From: a virus
Virus record (IMG/VR): IMGVR_UViG_3300027770_000224
Span: 1-26,081 of that record
Strand: one strand, 5' to 3'
DNA: 26,081 nt
The position numbers were made by a program, and so were the translations under genes. Under the pieces are notes generated by a model. The model was not told the DNA's origin. It worked only from the letters and a program-made list of their open reading frames with translations, and did no database searches. Below, piece after piece: positions 8,735 to 22,343 of the stretch. How positions within the stretch are numbered: position 1 is the first letter of the stretch; every line of letters begins with the position of its first letter.

Positions 8735-9190
8735 TTATTCCCCGATCCATTTGCTGTAATATGTCTCTACAGGTTCCATTTTCAAAAATTCAAACATCCG
8801 TGACGCGTCTTTGTGAAGTTTGGAACCGTAAAACATACGATGCACGCCTCTCCTTTTAGCCTCTTTTTCAACTAAACGAAAGAGTTTTACACCACTAAAT
8901 CCACCACGCACATCTGGATGTGTCCAAAAGATGTCCATCGTCAGCGTCAGGCACGTTTGGTAGTGTAGCCCCGGCGCAATAAAACCTATGAAATATCCCA
9001 CTAAACGGCCAGTTTCGCGCAACGTCACCACTAGCACTTGGCCGGCGTTATCGCGGACAGCGTAAAGGTCGTACTGCGGATCAAGCGGAACTTTATCTTT
9101 GTTGAGCGCCAATTCTTCCCAATGCAGCGGCAACAACGGTTGCGCTTCTTCAATAAAGGGAACCCAATCTTCAACTTGTGCTGTAATCAT
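8735..9190 (-). CDS. GNAT-family N-acetyltransferase
   Basis: 151 residues. The central part has the GNAT order: a strand with GRLVGYFIGF, then TLTMDIFWTHPDVRGG, then the acetyl-CoA pyrophosphate loop R-G-G-F-S-G with the following helix (VKLFRLVEKEAKRRGV), then a strand with FYGSK and a C-terminal FLKMEPVETYYSKWIG as in many acetyltransferases. The loop deviates slightly from Q/RxxGxG/A (RGGFSG). It would transfer acetyl from acetyl-CoA to an amine; the acceptor is unknown. Its ATG overlaps the hydroxylase stop (TAATG), and it directly precedes the ejection genes, so virion proteins are plausible substrates. Confidence 0.8.
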   Translation of the reverse strand: MITAQVEDWVPFIEEAQPLLPLHWEELALNKDKVPLDPQYDLYAVRDNAGQVLVVTLRETGRLVGYFIGFIAPGLHYQTCLTLTMDIFWTHPDVRGGFSGVKLFRLVEKEAKRRGVHRMFYGSKLHKDASRMFEFLKMEPVETYYSKWIGE

Positions 9191-9732
9191 TATGCGCTCC
9201 TGATGTCTACAATGCAGACTATCCTATCATCTGCGCTGTTGTTTACAACAGAATGTGTTACGCGATTGTTGACCCACCAGATTTCGCCGCCGCGGAAGTT
9301 AACCGTTTCGTCGCCGCTGTGAAACAGCGCGCCGGGCAGGGACTGAAGCGCAATCTGGTAGCGGATATAAAACTCTGCTGGAGCGCCGCCGTCAACGTGC
9401 GGCGTAATCTGACCGCCCGGAGGCAGTTTAGTAATGATGCAGCGGCCAAGCTGGACGCCGTTGACGCGGTGGATCAGGTCCAGCACCATGCGGCGCAGCG
9501 ACGGTAGCCGCGCCCACGCAGGATACTCGACCGTCTGGATGTCATTAATAACACCGTCAGGCGTGTCAGGGATTGCGTTAAACCACAGCCAGATGTCGCT
9601 GACGGCTGCGTGTGCGGTGTCAGGGTGGCTGGTGCGAAGTGTATTCTGGTCCCACAACTCTGGCTGCGTGACTAACTCCCGTAGAACAGAAGATGTATTT
9701 AGCCCGTCAGCGATGCGTAGGAAATTCTTCAT
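9190..9732 (-). CDS. 2-oxoglutarate/Fe(II) dioxygenase, aspartyl/asparaginyl beta-hydroxylase-like
   Basis: 180 residues. The C-terminal half has the double-stranded beta-helix iron site: H112-x-D114 (ITPHVDGG) and distal H160 (NNRVTHSVVNN), with R170 ten residues later at the position that binds 2-oxoglutarate in this family (DDRIVCIVDIR). GEIWWVNNRVTHSVVN is typical of aspartyl/asparaginyl beta-hydroxylases. The reaction would hydroxylate a side chain with 2-oxoglutarate and O2. It is coupled to both neighbours by one-base TAATG overlaps. Prolyl-hydroxylase-like specificity or a small-molecule substrate cannot be excluded. Confidence 0.85.
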   Translation of the reverse strand: MKNFLRIADGLNTSSVLRELVTQPELWDQNTLRTSHPDTAHAAVSDIWLWFNAIPDTPDGVINDIQTVEYPAWARLPSLRRMVLDLIHRVNGVQLGRCIITKLPPGGQITPHVDGGAPAEFYIRYQIALQSLPGALFHSGDETVNFRGGEIWWVNNRVTHSVVNNSADDRIVCIVDIRSA

Positions 9733-14734: not shown

Positions 14735-15943
14735 TTAACCCCACATCCGAACAGCCATCTGTGGACGGATTGTGCTGTAACCGTACAGAACGTCAATACG
14801 GCAAGGCAGACGGTCGTTGTTGATGTCGTACTGACGAACAACGCGCAAGCTGATGCCGTTATGCACCTGACGCGAAGCCATATCTACACCCTGTGGGAGC
14901 AGAAGATCGGCGGTTGCGAAGGTGATAGCGTCCTTGTGGTAGATGAGGTTCTGCGGATATGCCGTTGAAGCCGTACCAACAAAGATGATTGCCTTCGAGT
15001 TGCCGGGCAACGAGTTAACGGTAGCAAGTGCCTGTGTAGCCGAGTAGATCGGTGAAACAGTGATGTTGCCTGCGCCAGAAGCGTTGAGCGTGACATCAGC
15101 AGTTGCAACAAACTGGAACAACGAACCAGTGCTTTCACGGGTTTGTGGGTTAACGCTGAAGCAGTCAGCTACAGTGAAAACGTCGCCAGCCTTAACGGTT
15201 GCCGATGCGCCAGCGCCAGTGATGGCGATGGTGGTTGCACCTTCAGTAGTAACAGCCGCCGAAGTCGTGCCGCCAGTTGCAGTACGCGAACCAACGGTAA
15301 ACTGCTTGATTGACTGCGACATATTGACTTCGTCGTAGCCAAGTACGCCTGTACCCATCATACCGTTCTTGAACTGTTTGCTGATCGTGTCGGTTGGGTT
15401 GAATAGACCCTTCAGACCTTCAACCAAACCAGCGTTGGCGGCTGGGTTAACAGTTGCATAGCGTGGCGACATTACAGCAGCATTTTCGTTGAGCTTCTGC
15501 TGTGCAGCAAGAAGAACAGCCGAAGTAGCTGGCGTAGTGCCGGGCGTGCCAACAGTGTTACCGATGGTCAAGAACGAGTTAGCAACGTCAGCGTCGATGC
15601 TGGCAGCAAGCTGCGAGATACGTGGCTTGAGAACGCGGTCTGCGAAATCGTCAAGCTGCATCGTCAATTCAGCAGTCGTGAAGTTGACGCCGATGTGCTT
15701 CTGGGTGGAAACAGCAAGAGTTGTGTACTGCTCGTTGTCATCCTGTACCTGAAGGGCTGCGCCGTCAGTTACAAGCGCACGGTCTGGAAGACGGATACGC
15801 AGGGTTGAGCCAATTTTAGCACCTTCGACAGCAAAGCTATCGTCGTACTGGCGGTTTACGTTACGTGTGAGCACAAGGTTGTTCTCAAGGATTTCGAGAG
15901 CCTTCCGTGTGATCATGTCAATTGTTAAAATCGAGTTAGACAT
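14735..15943 (-). CDS. P22 gp5-like major coat protein
   Basis: 402 residues, near P22 coat (430). The start (NSILTIDMITRKALEILENNLVLTRNVNRQYDDSF..GAKIGSTLRIRLPDRA) and TTLAVSTQKHIGVNFTTAELTMQLDDFADRVLKPRISQLAASIDADV are the N-arm and spine-helix region of P22-type coat proteins, which have an HK97 fold. Downstream are the P-domain-like segments (YATVNPAANAGLVEGLKGLFNP) and a beta-rich part (residues about 210-300) that occupies the place of the P22 insertion domain. It assembles on the scaffold encoded immediately upstream (15 bases), with the portal at one vertex. The identification is firm. Confidence 0.92.
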   Translation of the reverse strand: MSNSILTIDMITRKALEILENNLVLTRNVNRQYDDSFAVEGAKIGSTLRIRLPDRALVTDGAALQVQDDNEQYTTLAVSTQKHIGVNFTTAELTMQLDDFADRVLKPRISQLAASIDADVANSFLTIGNTVGTPGTTPATSAVLLAAQQKLNENAAVMSPRYATVNPAANAGLVEGLKGLFNPTDTISKQFKNGMMGTGVLGYDEVNMSQSIKQFTVGSRTATGGTTSAAVTTEGATTIAITGAGASATVKAGDVFTVADCFSVNPQTRESTGSLFQFVATADVTLNASGAGNITVSPIYSATQALATVNSLPGNSKAIIFVGTASTAYPQNLIYHKDAITFATADLLLPQGVDMASRQVHNGISLRVVRQYDINNDRLPCRIDVLYGYSTIRPQMAVRMWG

Positions 15944-15958
15944 GGTAATAATCCCAAA

Positions 15959-16744
15959 TTATCTGTTGCGTTGTGCCTCGTACTTCTTGATCTGCCGCAT
16001 ACGCTCTGCTTCGATCCATTCCGACGTAGTCATTGACTTAGTCGAACGAGGATCAGTTGTGTCAAACTGGTTTGACCCAGTAGAACGTGCTGTGACAGGC
16101 GCAATCGGAGCCGGGGCGTTTGAAGTTCTTTTAACCGGCGGATTTGAGGACAATGAAGCCTCAAGTTTTCCAATTTCTTTTGCCTGCAAAATTGGCGCTA
16201 GACGGGCAATACGATCAGCTTCTTTCGGATTAGAGCCGAGATAATATAGAACGTCTGGGCCTGCGTCTGACGCTTGGATGCTTTGCGCCATGAAATCCGT
16301 AATAGGAAGGTTGGGATTGTATGCGACTTGTTCAAAGTCATCATACCTGTCCCGCGCTGCCTCTTCTAGATCATGGTAGGCATCCTGCATTTCAGATTGC
16401 TGCCTTGCGGTTTCCCGCCTTGCAAGCAATTCTTCAGCTTTACGTTCGGCCAAAACCTCTGCGTAATCTTCATATGTCTCAAATTGATCAGGGGTAATAT
16501 CATAGCCTGCTTGCTGGCGGGCTTGGACTTCCTCTGCTCTTTGAGCCTGTTCGCGCTCCCATTTGCGCTGTTCTCTTGCGAGGCGCTTGCCAACAATTGC
16601 GTCAAGTTCTTCTTGTGTGAAGGACTTATTTGCTTCCTGTTCAGCAGGCGTTTCCGGCGTCGTGTTTTCTACAGGCTCGATTGCTGCCGTGGCTTCGAGT
16701 TCTGGCGCGGAGGCATCCGCTACGTTGGGGACTGTTTCGTCCAT
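15959..16744 (-). CDS. P22 gp8-like scaffolding protein
   Basis: 261 residues; acidic, Pro/Glu/Ala-rich N-terminus (1-40), long charged helices (about 43-140: QEELDAIVGKRLAREQRKWEREQ, EVLAERKAEELLARRETARQQ), a linker rich in Pro/Ser/Thr (about 200-230), and a basic C-terminal helix (EWIEAERMRQIKKYEAQRNR) corresponding to the coat-binding element of P22 scaffold. It precedes coat, as in P22. It nucleates procapsid assembly and leaves before DNA entry. The ATG at 16744 is preceded by GGAGTT that lies in a perfect hairpin. Confidence 0.85.
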   Translation of the reverse strand: MDETVPNVADASAPELEATAAIEPVENTTPETPAEQEANKSFTQEELDAIVGKRLAREQRKWEREQAQRAEEVQARQQAGYDITPDQFETYEDYAEVLAERKAEELLARRETARQQSEMQDAYHDLEEAARDRYDDFEQVAYNPNLPITDFMAQSIQASDAGPDVLYYLGSNPKEADRIARLAPILQAKEIGKLEASLSSNPPVKRTSNAPAPIAPVTARSTGSNQFDTTDPRSTKSMTTSEWIEAERMRQIKKYEAQRNR

Positions 16745-16800: not shown

Positions 16801-17079
16801 TTACTCGTAAAAAACAGATACAACGGGTGTTGTGCCGCCGACAACGACGTACAAACCCTTGCTAAAACCTACACCGCCATCGTCGCCGGTCAAGTTGTAC
16901 AACCCTGCGGTGACTGGCGTAAATGTTGCAATTATGACAGGATCGGCGGTAGACGCCGTTGCGCTATCGTAGATAGCAACAGTCGGAGCGGTCCCTGAAG
17001 ATACGAAAATGCTCTTCAGTTTGCCAAGCCCAACTTTTACCTGTGCAGTTGCGGTTAAGTTTCTAAATGTTGCAGCCAT
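16801..17079 (-). CDS. Small beta-rich structural protein, 92 residues
   Basis: The sequence alternates short strands (QVKVGLGKLKSIFVSSG, PTVAIYDSATA, DPVIIATFTPVTAGLYNL, GVGFSKGLYVVVGGTTPVVSVFY). This is a pattern I associate with small phage proteins of unknown function near capsid genes. AGGAT lies about 9 bases upstream of ATG. The gene sits between the Dps-like gene and scaffold. Decoration or head-fibre function is only an inference. Confidence 0.6.
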   Translation of the reverse strand: MAATFRNLTATAQVKVGLGKLKSIFVSSGTAPTVAIYDSATASTADPVIIATFTPVTAGLYNLTGDDGGVGFSKGLYVVVGGTTPVVSVFYE

Positions 17080-17089
17080 ACGTATTATC

Positions 17090-17452
17090 CTAAGCCAAAA
17101 ATTTCAATTTGTACAAGGTTGAATAGTACAACCCAAAAATCTCGTCGATAATGTTTTGCAAGGGGGTGCAATCCTTATCAACGACTTTATACCGCATTTC
17201 CTCAAGTTCGTCTACCTGACCTTCAAGAAACGCAACAATATTGTTTGTCTTCTTAGCTGACATAAGCGAAATAGGGCCGATAAGGCCATATTTGCCTTGA
17301 TAAGCCTCAGCAAATTTGTCGGCTAAATCAACCACGCCGTTGTAGAACTTCTGCAACGCTTTGTGCTTTGCGTAGCTACGCGTGTTCAGGTGCGTCGAAT
17401 GGGCTACATCGCGCGCGAGAAACAGTGTGCCTACGAAGTCAGCGCATTTCAT
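17090..17452 (-). CDS. DUF5856-like protein with Dps/ferritin-like ferroxidase residue spacing
   Basis: 120 residues, predicted all-helical. The N-terminal helices (FVGTLFLARDVAHSTHLNTRSYAKHKALQKFYNGVVDLADKF..., given as pieces: DVAHSTHLNTRSYAKH, KALQKFYNGVVDLADK, FAEAYQGKYGL) fit a family I know as DUF5856 in phages. H18, H30, D45 and E49 have spacings 12, 15 and 4, identical to H51, H63, D78 and E82 of E. coli Dps ferroxidase; H21 is an alternative first ligand. The second Dps aspartate (D67) corresponds to Q34 and is missing. Dps proteins bind DNA and oxidise iron with peroxide. The gene is coupled (ATGA) to the fibre chaperone gene. Family membership is likely; the iron function is inferred. 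Confidence 0.65.
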   Translation of the reverse strand: MKCADFVGTLFLARDVAHSTHLNTRSYAKHKALQKFYNGVVDLADKFAEAYQGKYGLIGPISLMSAKKTNNIVAFLEGQVDELEEMRYKVVDKDCTPLQNIIDEIFGLYYSTLYKLKFLA

Positions 17453-17907
17453 GATGATGGACTTTCGGGCCAGACGATAGCAAATGGGTTAGCTTGCGTG
17501 GTTATGTCGCGCAATGCTTGGCGGTATGTAGCCCATGCAGGAGCGTCTGCCGAAGCGTCAGGTAGCTGCGTCCAATCGGATTCGACCAGCAGCTTGTTAC
17601 GTTCAGCGCGAATAATAGGCCATTGCGCTTTAACTTTTTCCGCGGATGCGTCTGCACTAAGGTCCGTCACACTATAGTTCTGTGTCCAAACGCCATCAAT
17701 CAGCAGGGCTGGGCCTTCATCAAGACTTTGCGTGGCTGGTTCGTGATATGGCGGCGTGACAATCTGTTTCTTATGCACGCCAAAACGCTCTACCTGTTCA
17801 GGTGTTAGCGCGCGGGCGTAGCAATAGTTATCCGCGTCCCACTGCGTTGGCTCGACATCAAAGATGTGCCGTATGAAGGTGTCGCCTTGGGCTTGGACAT
17901 ACCACAT
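17449..17907 (-). CDS. Tail fibre assembly chaperone-like protein (phage tail APC domain)
   Basis: 152 residues. The C-terminal about 60 residues (IRAERNKLLVESDWTQLPDA, PAWATYRQALRDITTQAN, FAIVWPESP) match the recurring phage tail assembly chaperone domain, which is typically encoded just after a fibre gene and helps the fibre trimerise. The N-terminal half is specific to this protein (RHIFDVEPTQWDADNYCYARALTPEQVERFGV). It starts in a TAATG overlap with the 100-residue gene and lies two genes after the 630-residue fibre, which is its probable client. Confidence 0.8.
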   Translation of the reverse strand: MWYVQAQGDTFIRHIFDVEPTQWDADNYCYARALTPEQVERFGVHKKQIVTPPYHEPATQSLDEGPALLIDGVWTQNYSVTDLSADASAEKVKAQWPIIRAERNKLLVESDWTQLPDASADAPAWATYRQALRDITTQANPFAIVWPESPSS

Positions 17908-18209
17908 TATTCTGCTTCCTTTGCTTCCCGCTTGGCGGTTACACGTACAACAGCCGCATCGTATGCGGCTTGGTCTTCAATCTGTTCTTTCAGCGCAGCC
18001 ATGATGGCCTCTACGTTGCCCATCTGCTTGCGTGTGTCGTTAAGTCTTTCTGCTACATTGGCCGCAAACTCATTGTCTGTAGCGTTTGCCAACAGATGCT
18101 CAAAGTTCTTGCGGTCAAAATCGTAATGAAAATACTCAACTTCACGCGCGTACATTGCATCCGCTAGGGTGTCGTATTTGTAATCATCGCTGAGTTGTGT
18201 GTAGATCAT
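17907..18209 (-). CDS. Hypothetical protein, 100 residues, between fibre and chaperone
   Basis: Starts MIYTQLSDDYKYDTLADAMYAREVEYFHYDFD, then helical (FEHLLANATDNEFAANVAERLND, VEAIMAALKEQIEDQAAYDAAVVRVTAKREAKEAE). Rich in acidic and aromatic residues at the N-terminus, no membrane segment. I have seen similar proteins in environmental phages near fibre chaperones, without known function. Its stop overlaps the chaperone start by one base, so it may assist fibre folding; this is inference from neighbours. Confidence 0.65.
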   Translation of the reverse strand: MIYTQLSDDYKYDTLADAMYAREVEYFHYDFDRKNFEHLLANATDNEFAANVAERLNDTRKQMGNVEAIMAALKEQIEDQAAYDAAVVRVTAKREAKEAE

Positions 18210-18222
18210 GTAAGGTCTTTCT

Positions 18223-20115
18223 TTATGTAACAGTAGTAAACGCTACGCCGTAGCCAAGGCCAGTAGGTAATGTAGCTGGATTGGTGTACTTAGTGCCAAA
18301 GGCAGAGCCAGACCAAGGGTAGGCTGTGATATACGGCGATGTCTGATGCGCTATCGCAATAGCACTACCAGTATTGTTAAACGCTACGCCGTTGCCGTAG
18401 CCCGCAACCGCTGTAGCTGGATCGGCGTATTTGGTGCCAAAGCCGGTGCCGGCGTTCCATGGGTAAACTGAAACAAACGGTGATACGTCATGCGCTACAG
18501 CAATGGCAGTTCCAGCAGGACTAAAAGCGACGCCGTAACCCTCACCCGTAGGCAGCGTAGCTGGATTGGTATATTTAGTACCAAAACCAGCGCCGCTCCA
18601 CGGATATGCGGTGATGTTGGGTGTTACTCCGCTGCCGTTCGCTACAGCAATAGATGTGCCGGCAGGATTAAAGGCAACACCAAAACCAGTGCCGGTAGGT
18701 AGTGTAGCGGGGTTAGTATATTTAACGCCGAAGCCAGTGCCGGCGTTCCAAGGGTATGCGTTAATATATGGTGATGCGTCATGCCCTACGGCAATAGTGT
18801 CACCCGCAGGGTTAAAGGCAACACCGTAACCATTGCCCCCAACCGCTGTAGCTGGATTGGTATATTTAGTGCCGAAGCCGGTGCCGGCGTTAAACGGATA
18901 AGCGGTTATATTTGGAGCCGTACTGTGCGCTACAGCAATAGAAGTGCCAGCAGGATTAAACGCTACGCCACGGCCAGTGCCTGTAGGTAGTGTAGCTGGA
19001 TCGGTATATTTGGTGCCGAAGCCAGCGCCGCTCCACGGGTATGCAGTGATAAAGCCCCCAAAAGGGCCGCCACCCACTGCGATAGCAGTACCAGCAGGAT
19101 TAAACGCTACGCCGTAGCCATTAGTGGTCGCAGGCAGTGTTGCGGGGTTAGTAAGCTTAGCGCCAAAGCCGGTGCTGGAGTTAAACGAATATACGGAAAC
19201 GTAGGGTGATGCAGTATGCGCTACAGCTATAATTTCACCTGTAGTATAGGAAGCTGGCGTGCCAGTTTGATATAAATAATTCGCCATCCATTTAGTAGCC
19301 GTGACTTTTATGCACATCAACGTTTGGTTGGCTGCAACTGCTATTGAACCTGTAGTGCCGTTGCCATACACCAGCGTGTCGCTAGTTATAACAACGCCAA
19401 CTGTTGTTCCGCCGTTTTCTACCGTGAACAACACAACAGTACCGATTGGAAACGCGACGCTGGCGTTAGCGGGTATGGTGTATGTGCGGACAGTAGTGTC
19501 GGCTACAGGGTGAAATATTTGCTTACCGGCGTCGCCAATTACCAGCGTGTAGTTAGCGGATTGACTGTTTTGCGGAAAAGACACGCCGCTTGATATAGCT
19601 GTAGATGCCCACGTTGTACCGTTGCTGGTCAAAACGTTACCTGAAGTACCCGGGGCAACAGAAGTCACAGCCGACGTGCCGTTGCCAATTAGGACGTTAT
19701 TAGCTGTAAGTGTGGCTAAACCTGTGCCCCCCGATGCAACACCAAGTGCGGTGGTAAGCGTTGTAGCGCCCGTAACGGCAAGTGTACTGCTAAGAGTTGT
19801 AGCCCCTGTGACGCCAAGTGTACTGCTAAGAGTTGCAGCGCCTGTAACACCAAGTGTGCCAGTAACCGTTGTATTGCCTGTAAGGCCCGTAGTGCCTGTG
19901 ACGGCAAAATTGTTAGGTATAGTGACGTTGCCCGCAGACGTTACGGAGATTGGCAACTCTTGTACCGCGCCGGCGCCTGACGTATCGCGACCAAGAACTT
20001 TACCAGCGGCGGCGGTCAATACGTGTTCTTGGTTCCAGTTGGACGGCTGGACAAGCGTTGCGTCGGCGCTGTCAGTTTTGGCAGACGTAAAGGTATGTTT
20101 GAGGCTTATAGTCAT
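18223..20115 (-). CDS. Tail/head fibre with C-terminal seven-unit beta-propeller-like domain
   Basis: 630 residues. Residues 1-70 are a fibre-type start; about 77-125 has 12-residue shaft repeats (LGVTGATTLSST and variants); about 126-175 is a Gly/Thr/Asn linker; about 180-285 is a beta domain (SANYTLVIGDAGKQIFHP, TYTIPANASVAFPIG, TLMCIKVTATKWMANY). Residues 294-630 consist of seven units of 48-49 residues, consensus IAVAHxxSPxITAYPW-x-GFGTKYTNPATLPTG-GYGVAFNPAG, which look like WD40-type blades. The first unit begins at the second strand and the last ends with the first strand, as in a ring closed by its two ends. Receptor binding is the likely role. It overlaps the portal stop by ATGA and is followed by a fibre chaperone. 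Confidence 0.8.
   Translation of the reverse strand: MTISLKHTFTSAKTDSADATLVQPSNWNQEHVLTAAAGKVLGRDTSGAGAVQELPISVTSAGNVTIPNNFAVTGTTGLTGNTTVTGTLGVTGAATLSSTLGVTGATTLSSTLAVTGATTLTTALGVASGGTGLATLTANNVLIGNGTSAVTSVAPGTSGNVLTSNGTTWASTAISSGVSFPQNSQSANYTLVIGDAGKQIFHPVADTTVRTYTIPANASVAFPIGTVVLFTVENGGTTVGVVITSDTLVYGNGTTGSIAVAANQTLMCIKVTATKWMANYLYQTGTPASYTTGEIIAVAHTASPYVSVYSFNSSTGFGAKLTNPATLPATTNGYGVAFNPAGTAIAVGGGPFGGFITAYPWSGAGFGTKYTDPATLPTGTGRGVAFNPAGTSIAVAHSTAPNITAYPFNAGTGFGTKYTNPATAVGGNGYGVAFNPAGDTIAVGHDASPYINAYPWNAGTGFGVKYTNPATLPTGTGFGVAFNPAGTSIAVANGSGVTPNITAYPWSGAGFGTKYTNPATLPTGEGYGVAFSPAGTAIAVAHDVSPFVSVYPWNAGTGFGTKYADPATAVAGYGNGVAFNNTGSAIAIAHQTSPYITAYPWSGSAFGTKYTNPATLPTGLGYGVAFTTVT
18226..19236 (-). 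repeat. Seven tandem 144-147-base units encoding propeller blades
   Basis: Units begin at residues 296, 345, 393, 441, 489, 538 and 586 (second strand IAVAH-like). The DNA shows the same period, for example GCTACAGCAATAG recurring near 18493, 18640, 18930 and 19218 on the plus strand. Copies differ at many synonymous positions, so they are not a recent expansion. Confidence 0.88.
19741..19887 (-). repeat. 12-residue fibre-shaft repeats
   Basis: About four 36-base units encode LTGNTTVTGT, LGVTGAATLSST, LGVTGATTLSST and LAVTGATTLTTA in tandem. Such short Gly/Thr repeats are typical of trimeric fibre shafts. Confidence 0.75.
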
Positions 20116-22343
20116 TCCATCATTCCTTCAGGTGGCATCTCAGGCATACCGCCCATATCTTGCATTGGTTGCTGCGGAGGCATTTCTTCGTTCATTTCAG
20201 GTTGCTCACGCATTTCTGGTGATCCGCTAATCAAATCACCTGTGTCTAACGCGCCAGCAATCGTCCCCATGACAATATCCTGAATTTGCTCTTCTGTCAT
20301 CCCTGCTTGCATCGCGCTGATACGTTTTGTTTCCGCATCGTAGGCGTCTACCTGCGCCTTGTATTCCTTGATGTCTACTTCGCGCTTTGCAACGTCAGCC
20401 TGCACGCCTTCGATAATATCGACCATGCGGTTGAGTTCTTGCGCCATAGCTTCCATCTGCTGCTGCGCTGCGGCCATTTCAGGTGACTCATCGCCGGTAG
20501 CAAGTACCTTGGGGTCAAGGATTTTCTTGAACCGTTCTGCCATTTCCTGCGCGCCGGGCCAATCCATGTTCTTAATGAACAGATCGCCCGCAACAGCCCA
20601 AAGCTGCGGGTTGGATTGCAGAATCTGGCTCATAGCGTCGAGTGCTTCTTGACGCTTGGTCATGTAGCCGGGGCCAGTAGTGACCATAACGTCGTATGTA
20701 CCAACGCCAGGGTTGTAAATCTTTTCGATCAGCCCGCCGGTTTCAGCATCGCGCACTTCACGCACTGGTTCTTCCTGCGACGGGTCCATTTTGACCATGC
20801 TGACTTCGCCGTCAGCACCAATGATGCGTGCAATACGCTGTGTGTCGTAGATTTTAGGGATCATATCGACGATTTGGCGTGTGATGTAGCGAATAGCCCG
20901 CGCAAGGTTGTCAACGTAGTGATACGTGCCAACATCGCCCTGCTTTTCGCGTGCGACGATAGCTTTTGCCGACCGTTCGTTGCCTTGTTCGCCTAGCGAC
21001 GCATCATACTGGCCGGTTGTGGCCTTGATGTCCTCTCCAGCGCCCATTTTAGCCTGTATCAGACCTGTTTGGGGCAAAGGTGGCTGTGCGCGTTGCGGGA
21101 GCGGTAGAACGCCTCCAGCGCCGTCTGTAACGTCTGGGTTGACTTCCAAATACGGCCAGTTGGTCGTGTTGGCAGTCTTCCACTGGTTTTCGTAGCCTTC
21201 AAACTGGCCGCCGTAACCGATAAATGGCGCTTTAGGCGCCAAGGCAAGCATTTCTGCCTCTTGGCTGGTCCAGTAGTTGTACATACGCTGGGCATCTTTG
21301 GCGTTACGCACAAGCCCAGAGATGTATATCTGGCCGTCAACTTCCCATTCGTTGCCAATTACGCGCACGACGGGGATATATTTGCCTGACCACTCGCGCT
21401 CATCAAGAATGTCATAGCCATTGGTCTTCATCCACATGACTTTTTTTCGGTCCACTTTGCGTGTGCGAAGCGGTTTGCCGTACATTTCTTTAAGCTGCTT
21501 GTCTTCTGGCGAGTTAGCCTTGGCAGTCTGGTTATTTGGGTACAGATGCAGCGTTTCGGAGTCGTAGACGTTGTAAAAATACTCCGCAATGCGGATTGTA
21601 TCTTCTTGCAGCCACGACGAAATGCCCTGATCACCAACGCCTTGGCTATATAATGTGCTGATTGGCGACGCGTCAGGGAACAAACGCTCATATTCTGACT
21701 TTAGTATATCTTCGGTGATAAAGCACCATTCGGCGTCTGAGCCGCATGGGTCTTGGATGGTGGGGTCCATGTAAACGCTAAATGCGTTACGGACACGGCC
21801 AATCTTGATGTCTTGGTCGAACGTATCGTCGTTGCAATACTCAGTCAGCAGCCGGATGTAACCTTCGCCGTAAGTGACTTGGTTGTCGCAGGCTGTGTCA
21901 TACGCAACGTCCGCATCTGACATATACTCAATGTGGCGGACCACACCATTGAAGATTTCAGCGACCTGTACGTCGGCGTTGTCATCCGCGGGTATTACTT
22001 TACCGTTTGGTCGGTTTTGACGCTGCTCGTTTGTTACCTGACGGACGTGCTGTGGCAGCTTGTTGATTGTCAGGCATGGACGTGCGTTGATAGCCTGTCC
22101 TTGCACGCTGCCGCGTGTTGACAACACGTCAGCAGGCCACTGCCACTGGTTGTCAGGGCTGCCGGCCATAAAGCGTAGATCGTCTAGTTCGTCCTCACGG
22201 CTGTCTGAATACGCAGCCTGCGCCATCTGAAGACGGCTACGCATGGTAGCCATCTTATCGTGATCGTCGCGCGTTGTCTTAGGCGCGTTCGATCCTACGT
22301 TGGCGACTTTGCCTGCCGCTTCAATGCCTGTGGGGTCGGCCAT
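20112..22343 (-). CDS. P22 gp1-like portal protein
   Basis: 743 residues, close to P22 gp1 (725). Recognisable P22-portal segments include the N-terminal FMAGSPDNQWQWPADV, ARPCLTINKLPQHVRQVTNEQRQNRP, VTYGEGYIRLLTEY, the YLEVNPDVTDG and LPLPQRAQPPLPQTGLIQAKMGAGEDIKATTGQYDASLGEQGNERS loop region (in pieces), and TGPGYMTKRQEALDAM. The C-terminus has a long helix (about 630-690), a barrel element as in P22, and ends in a Met/Pro/Glu/Gln-rich tail. It forms the dodecameric DNA channel and docks terminase. It follows a DUF6496-like small gene by three bases and overlaps the propeller fibre gene by 4. Confidence 0.92.
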   Translation of the reverse strand: MADPTGIEAAGKVANVGSNAPKTTRDDHDKMATMRSRLQMAQAAYSDSREDELDDLRFMAGSPDNQWQWPADVLSTRGSVQGQAINARPCLTINKLPQHVRQVTNEQRQNRPNGKVIPADDNADVQVAEIFNGVVRHIEYMSDADVAYDTACDNQVTYGEGYIRLLTEYCNDDTFDQDIKIGRVRNAFSVYMDPTIQDPCGSDAEWCFITEDILKSEYERLFPDASPISTLYSQGVGDQGISSWLQEDTIRIAEYFYNVYDSETLHLYPNNQTAKANSPEDKQLKEMYGKPLRTRKVDRKKVMWMKTNGYDILDEREWSGKYIPVVRVIGNEWEVDGQIYISGLVRNAKDAQRMYNYWTSQEAEMLALAPKAPFIGYGGQFEGYENQWKTANTTNWPYLEVNPDVTDGAGGVLPLPQRAQPPLPQTGLIQAKMGAGEDIKATTGQYDASLGEQGNERSAKAIVAREKQGDVGTYHYVDNLARAIRYITRQIVDMIPKIYDTQRIARIIGADGEVSMVKMDPSQEEPVREVRDAETGGLIEKIYNPGVGTYDVMVTTGPGYMTKRQEALDAMSQILQSNPQLWAVAGDLFIKNMDWPGAQEMAERFKKILDPKVLATGDESPEMAAAQQQMEAMAQELNRMVDIIEGVQADVAKREVDIKEYKAQVDAYDAETKRISAMQAGMTEEQIQDIVMGTIAGALDTGDLISGSPEMREQPEMNEEMPPQQPMQDMGGMPEMPPEGMME

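What the first reader, a model, noticed from the sequence alone, without database searches (positions are those of the whole stretch)
17090..17452. Phage protein with Dps-type ferroxidase spacing in the fibre/head region
In this 120-residue helical protein H18, H30, D45 and E49 are spaced exactly as H51, H63, D78 and E82 of E. coli Dps (12, 15 and 4). HLNTRS also resembles HWNMRG of Dps. The family (DUF5856-like, from memory) has no assigned role. A Dps-like protein made with late genes could protect DNA against iron/peroxide damage, bind DNA, or be carried in the virion. The missing Asp (Q34 in place of D67) and the alternative ligand H21 mean the site may be altered.
Basis: partly seen in the sequence, partly recalled or inferred. 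Interest (0 to 1): 0.65.

Follow-up and report, generated by a model that had tools for sequence, protein, structure and literature searches.

The report
Phage mini-ferritin related to Dps
A small protein of unknown role, made next to the head genes of this phage and shared by T4 and over a thousand other phages, turns out to be a short relative of the bacterial iron-oxidising, DNA-protecting protein Dps; relatives have been found in purified phage particles.

Summary
ORF 17452..17090, minus strand, is a 120-aa DUF5856 protein (PF19174, 3.6e-23; PHROG 858, 8.5e-28).

The Dps link holds, with one correction: the counterpart of Dps H51 is H21, not H18. In 53 non-redundant relatives H21, H30, D45 and E49 are invariant (53/53), while H18 is not (45/53). 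Two members carry three extra residues that restore the Dps spacing H-12-H from H21. The fifth Dps ligand (D67) is lost.

A DUF5856 profile finds solved Dps proteins by sequence (best E 6.6e-6). HHalign matches cellular Dps end to end (1.5e-5) but not bacterioferritin. AlphaFold gives a four-helix bundle (pLDDT 94.7) whose best PDB matches are Dps (Z 14.1, 2.3 A over 118 residues).

In P22-like phages the gene usually overlaps the portal stop codon (155 of 195 loci). One member is a confirmed virion protein (LIMEstone1 ORF78); two more are probable virion proteins.

Best reading: a phage-specific short Dps-like mini-ferritin with a two-fold-interface metal site, made late and probably virion-associated, limiting iron/peroxide damage. 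Activity, oligomer and packaging in this phage are untested. Database labels and one paper already hint at Dps/ferritin for relatives: a new variant of a known kind.

The parts
17090..17452 (-). Dps-like mini-ferritin gene, DUF5856/PHROG 858 (120 aa, 13.6 kDa, predicted pI 7.7); four helices at residues 3-23, 27-55, 72-90, 96-118
17390..17392 (-). H21 codon: counterpart of E. coli Dps H51 (first subunit, end of helix A); invariant 53/53
17363..17365 (-). H30 codon: counterpart of Dps H63 (start of helix B); invariant 53/53
17318..17320 (-). D45 codon: counterpart of Dps D78 (helix B, would come from the two-fold related subunit); invariant 53/53
17306..17308 (-). E49 codon: counterpart of Dps E82 (helix B, two-fold related subunit); invariant 53/53
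17399..17401 (-). H18 codon: conserved in 45/53 only; not the H51 counterpart
17449..17452 (-). ATGA overlap: start of the DUF5856 gene and stop of the upstream gene, consistent with translational coupling
17449..17907 (-). tail-fibre assembly chaperone (PF16778), directly upstream
18223..20115 (-). 630-aa fibre-like protein with repeats; with 17907-18209 and 17449-17907 it forms a cassette lying between portal and DUF5856 in this phage
20112..22343 (-). P22-like portal protein (PF16510); in most relatives its stop codon overlaps the DUF5856 start
16801..17079 (-). 92-aa uncharacterised neighbour, starts 10 nt after the DUF5856 stop
15959..16744 (-). head scaffolding protein
14735..15943 (-). 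P22-like coat protein (PF11651)

Best explanation
The gene encodes a phage-specific, shortened member of the Dps/mini-ferritin superfamily. Shown by computation: it is homologous to Dps over its whole length, has the Dps four-helix fold, and keeps four of the five Dps ferroxidase ligands (H21, H30, D45, E49 = Dps H51, H63, D78, E82) while losing D67. Inferred: as in Dps, H21/H30 of one subunit face D45/E49 of a two-fold partner. H30 and D45 are 15 residues apart on one helix, so a single chain cannot join them in one site. The dimer interface would then bind Fe(II) and oxidise it with H2O2 or O2, lowering Fenton damage to phage DNA late in infection or in the particle. Inferred from the operon and from relatives: it is made with the head and tail proteins and is probably virion-associated.
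For: A profile of 54 members finds solved Dps proteins: best E 6.6e-6, most of the top hits being Dps, with the four ligands paired. HHalign against 18 cellular Dps: E 1.5e-5 over 131 columns; bacterioferritin, reversed and shuffled controls give scores of 10.9 or less against 29.4. AlphaFold pLDDT 94.7, pTM 0.88, four helices. The ten best PDB matches by VIA-align are all Dps, Z 12.9-14.1, 118-119 of 120 residues; the Foldseek top 50 are almost all Dps. H21, H30, D45, E49, G53 invariant in 53/53. T4 RI.-1 gives the same fold (pLDDT 91.2, best Z 13.9 to Dps). Gene coupled to portal in 155/195 P22-like loci and next to head-tail adaptor, terminase or portal genes in other lineages. LIMEstone1 homologue, with a putative late promoter just upstream, confirmed in virions by MS.
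Against: No PF00210 match for this protein, and PF00210 not among the listed families of its relatives. Foldseek E-values are weak (best 0.23), and Z near 13 can occur for unrelated helical bundles. D67 is replaced by G, Q or N in most members, so a dinuclear centre may be weakened. The short BC-loop helix of Dps is absent from the model, so a 12-mer is uncertain. No activity, metal or oligomer data. T4 RI.-1 has been linked instead to lysis inhibition (PMC6832632).
Confidence: 0.62

Rival explanations
1. A Dps-derived virion protein whose metal site is structural (for example Zn or Mn at the dimer interface) and which acts as a head, neck or internal component or DNA-associated cargo, without ferroxidase function.
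For: Tight coupling to the portal gene; LIMEstone1 homologue in virions; loss of the D67 ligand; near-invariant residues outside the site (D103 51/53, N100, Y114).
Against: The counterparts of H51, D78 and E82, which bind the best-occupied iron in Dps (established knowledge), are kept along with H63, more strictly than most of the protein; T4-type genes lie in the rI operon, not in the head cluster.
Confidence: 0.22
2. An accessory regulator of lysis timing (lysis inhibition), as proposed for T4 RI.-1; the Dps fold is an ancestry relic or senses iron/redox state.
For: T4 rI.-1 is directly downstream of rI; over-expression slightly delays lysis-inhibition collapse (Golec et al. 2010 as reviewed in PMC6832632).
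Against: Effect reported as slight. Members occur in phages without T-even lysis inhibition (RaK2, PMC3622015; P22-like and T7-like phages here).
Confidence: 0.06
3. Iron-carrying virion component used for entry (the 'ferrojan horse' idea), proposed for the Vi01-like homologue.
For: Sajous1 gp217, called ferritin by Phyre2 (96.7), found in CsCl-purified virions; most likely the DUF5856 gene by gene order.
Against: Same paper: TonB and FeoB mutants were infected about equally well. In P22-like phages the gene is tied to portal rather than to a tail operon.
Confidence: 0.05
4. Chance: an unrelated four-helix bundle with coincidental residue spacing.
Against: Full-length profile match with controls, ligands invariant across 53 members, best structural hits concentrated in one family.
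Confidence: 0.03

Closest known systems
Dps / mini-ferritin family (PF00210; E. coli Dps, M. smegmatis Dps2, H. pylori NapA)
   Same: Fold, helix order, H51/H63/D78/E82 ligands, HxNxR-type motif at the A-B turn
   Different: 120 aa instead of about 150-167; 3-residue deletion in the A-B loop; no BC-loop helix in the model; no D67; no Lys-rich N-terminal tail; does not reach PF00210
DUF5856 (PF19174) / PHROG 858 'starvation-inducible transcriptional regulator', including T4 RI.-1 (MobD.7)
   Same: This protein is a member (82.9 bits, cut-off 34.6); same invariant residues and fold
   Different: Pfam gives no role; the PHROG name looks like a garbled Dps description and nothing here supports transcription regulation; T4-type genes lie in the rI operon, here in the head/tail operon
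Dps enzymes already reported in phages (Lactobacillus phages, Gratiaviridae; PMC8008677)
   Same: Phage-encoded ferritin-like protection proteins
   Different: Described there as DPS-family enzymes of gut and Lactobacillus phages, with no mention of DUF5856 in the passages read; DUF5856 is a divergent group in T4-like, Vi01-like, P22-like and T7-like phages
LIMEstone1 ORF78 / Vi01-like 'ferritin' gp217 (PMC3296691, PMC10892097)
   Same: Same family (ORF78 by sequence; gp217 by gene order)
   Different: Ackermannviridae myoviruses; there near tail/structural genes, ORF78 with its own putative late promoter

Membership tests
DUF5856 (PF19174) | Score above the curated Pfam cut-off | tested here: met
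   82.9 bits against 34.6; all 54 members of A3 match the family
Dps (mini-ferritin) | Four-helix ferritin-type bundle | tested here: met
   predicted model, best matches Dps
Dps (mini-ferritin) | Inter-subunit ligands H51, H63, D78, E82 | tested here: met
   H21, H30, D45, E49 aligned to them and invariant 53/53; their geometry across a dimer was not modelled
Dps (mini-ferritin) | Fifth ligand D67 (Asp/Glu four residues after H63) | tested here: not met
   Position 34 is G 29, Q 12, N 5 of 53; acidic only rarely. It is therefore called Dps-like, not Dps
Dps (mini-ferritin) | Short helix in the B-C loop at the two-fold interface | tested here: not met
   Residues 56-71 have no helix in the model
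Dps (mini-ferritin) | Membership in Pfam Ferritin PF00210 by score | tested here: not met
   No PF00210 hit for P0001 at E up to 10; PF00210 not among the 25 families listed for the members
Dps (mini-ferritin) | Sequence homology to Dps | tested here: met
   Profile E 6.6e-6 to Dps in PDB; HHalign E 1.5e-5, controls negative
Dps (mini-ferritin) | Dodecameric shell | not testable with these tools
   Only single-chain prediction available
Dps (mini-ferritin) | Ferroxidase activity with H2O2 | not testable with these tools
   Needs bench work
Bacterioferritin/ferritin | Detectable profile similarity to a ferritin/Bfr alignment | tested here: inconclusive
   HHalign score -0.09 to 16 Bfr/Ftn proteins, though Bfr chains also match structurally at Z about 12

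The most novel reading that the evidence does not exclude
A whole clade of DUF5856 mini-ferritins, including T4 RI.-1 and the portal-coupled proteins of P22-like phages, is packaged in or on virions as an iron/peroxide defence for the phage genome: a phage counterpart of nucleoid protection by Dps, carried with the particle.
Probability: 0.33. Interest if true: 0.75.

Novelty: new variant of a known kind. Interest (0 to 1): 0.55.

Why it matters
If right, phage T4 and more than a thousand sequenced phages encode a Dps-type iron protein that has gone under 'unknown', 'structural protein' or the misleading 'transcriptional regulator'. It gives a testable role to T4 RI.-1 and to a confirmed virion protein of Ackermannviridae, and it brings iron and oxidative damage into the biology of lytic phages of common enterobacteria, where the earlier reports found here concerned gut and Lactobacillus phages.

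Tried and rejected
Single-sequence search of PDB sequences: no match. Literature search for DUF5856: no paper. Alignment A1 (and A2 on genome contigs) had no stretch conserved enough for a collection scan. Bacterioferritin kinship by profile: no signal. A cellular origin of the gene was considered: the family occurs in only 3 of 399 genomes of one bacterial order, one beside a P22-like portal, so it is a phage gene. Foldseek E-values against PDB are weak (best 0.23), so the fold match alone was not taken as proof. Golec et al. 2010 is not held; it is cited through a review.

Full report
What is there. The window is a 26,081-base virus record from IMG/VR. Its genes run mainly on the minus strand in P22-like order: terminase large subunit, portal, a fibre cassette, the gene in question, a 92-aa protein, scaffold, coat, then head-completion and tail genes. 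The gene is 17452..17090 on the minus strand, 120 aa. It overlaps the upstream tail-fibre assembly gene by ATGA, and its stop is 10 nt before the next start.

Family. It is a DUF5856 protein (PF19174, 3.6e-23) and belongs to PHROG 858, named 'starvation-inducible transcriptional regulator' (8.5e-28). The T4 member is RI.-1/MobD.7, directly downstream of rI. In bacterial genomes it is rare: 3 of 399 in one order, one of them beside a P22-like portal and so in a prophage (L318).

Conservation. From 272 loci, 53 sequences under 85% identity were aligned. H21, H30, D45, E49 and G53 are invariant. H18 is H in 45 and R, K or Y in 8. Position 34, the counterpart of Dps D67, is G, Q or N in most.

Homology to Dps. 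A profile of 54 members searched against all PDB sequences returned H. pylori NapA first (6.6e-6), with most of the other leading hits Dps proteins, pairing H21/H30/D45/E49 with the NapA residues equivalent to E. coli H51/H63/D78/E82 (a second profile gave the same). HHalign against 18 cellular Dps, drawn from genomes of the phylum of a bacterial MAG that carries the gene, gave E 1.5e-5, score 29.4, over 131 columns. The bacterioferritin set gave -0.09, and reversed or shuffled controls gave at most 10.9.

Structure. AlphaFold2 with 54 sequences: pLDDT 94.7, pTM 0.88, four helices, no BC-loop helix. The ten best PDB matches by VIA-align are Dps (Z 14.1, rmsd 2.3 A, 118 residues for M. smegmatis Dps2; E. 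coli Dps Z 12.8). Foldseek ranks almost only Dps but with weak E-values. Because helical bundles can reach such Z by chance, the fold is taken as support together with the sequence evidence, not alone. T4 RI.-1 gives the same fold (pLDDT 91.2; best Dps Z 13.9). The viral structure library also lists giant-virus proteins among the matches.

Setting. In 195 P22-like loci with a portal gene, the DUF5856 start overlaps the portal stop by 8 nt or less in 155 (90 by 4 nt, 65 by 1 nt). In this window a three-gene fibre cassette sits between them. In other lineages it lies after a T7-type head-tail adaptor (L113), between terminase and portal (L245), or shortly upstream of terminase (L206, L226). T4-type members lie in the rI operon.

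Virion evidence for relatives. LIMEstone1 ORF78 is the DUF5856 gene (100% to the query used), 13.15 kDa, found in virions by mass spectrometry with 3 peptides and 28% coverage (PMC3296691), annotated 'confirmed structural protein' with a putative late promoter just upstream. In Klebsiella T4-like phages ValerieMcCarty03/04, the protein with the PHROG 858 name had 26/27 spectra in CsCl-purified virions (PMC13119998); its identity rests on the name only. In Sajous1, gp217 was detected in virions and called ferritin by Phyre2 (PMC10892097); its identity as DUF5856 rests on gene order in the related phage Guerrero. Those authors proposed iron-mediated entry but found no effect of TonB or FeoB mutations.

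Mechanism. In Dps the iron site lies between two subunits (established knowledge): H51 and H63 of one, D78 and E82 of the other. H30 and D45 here are 15 residues apart on one helix, too far to share a site within one chain, so a two-fold dimer as in Dps is the natural reading. Fold, homology and ligand conservation are shown by computation; dimer, metal, oxidation chemistry, protection of DNA and packaging in this phage are inferred. Loss of D67 may leave one strong and one weak metal site.

Novelty. Dps proteins in phages are known (PMC8008677), one DUF5856 member was deposited as 'putative starvation-induced DNA protecting protein', and one was probably the protein called ferritin in Sajous1. 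What is added here is the family-wide test, the corrected register, the extension to T4 RI.-1 by structure, and the coupling to portal in P22-like phages. Hence: new variant of a known kind.

Noticed in passing
window 9190-9732 (-): Aspartyl/asparaginyl beta-hydroxylase-like protein (PF05118, 5.5e-14), an Fe(II)-dependent oxygenase family, in the tail gene region, followed by a GNAT acetyltransferase (8735-9190). The podovirus MW202483 also has a gene named 2OG-Fe(II) oxygenase between its DUF5856 and coat genes.
   Followed up: no
L317 233-1222 (+) and 1444-1806 (+): A reverse transcriptase (PF00078) just upstream of a 120-aa ORF at the place where DUF5856 matched in a bacterial genome; possibly a diversity-generating retroelement of a prophage.
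   Followed up: no
BFVD hits (Pithovirus LCPAC404 A0A481ZC29, Fadolivirus A0A7D3V608): Giant-virus proteins without an assigned name match the Dps-like model.
   Followed up: no
BFVD hits (A0A6J7WIS1, A0A8S5MNG7, A0A6J5N5R9): Long phage proteins labelled prohead protease (432 aa), NUDIX hydrolase (713 aa) and Ferritin/DPS domain protein (679 aa) match the Dps-like model, which suggests ferritin-like domains fused to other phage proteins.
   Followed up: no
window 18223-20115 (-): 630-aa fibre-like protein with a run of near-identical repeats (GVAFNPAG...) in its C-terminal half; with two small genes it lies between portal and the DUF5856 gene, where most relatives have the two genes overlapping.
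   Followed up: partly
phages record OR844944 (hit H43): A record labelled Enterococcus phage carries a DUF5856 gene identical to that of Salmonella Kuttervirus phages: probably contamination or mislabelling.
   Followed up: no
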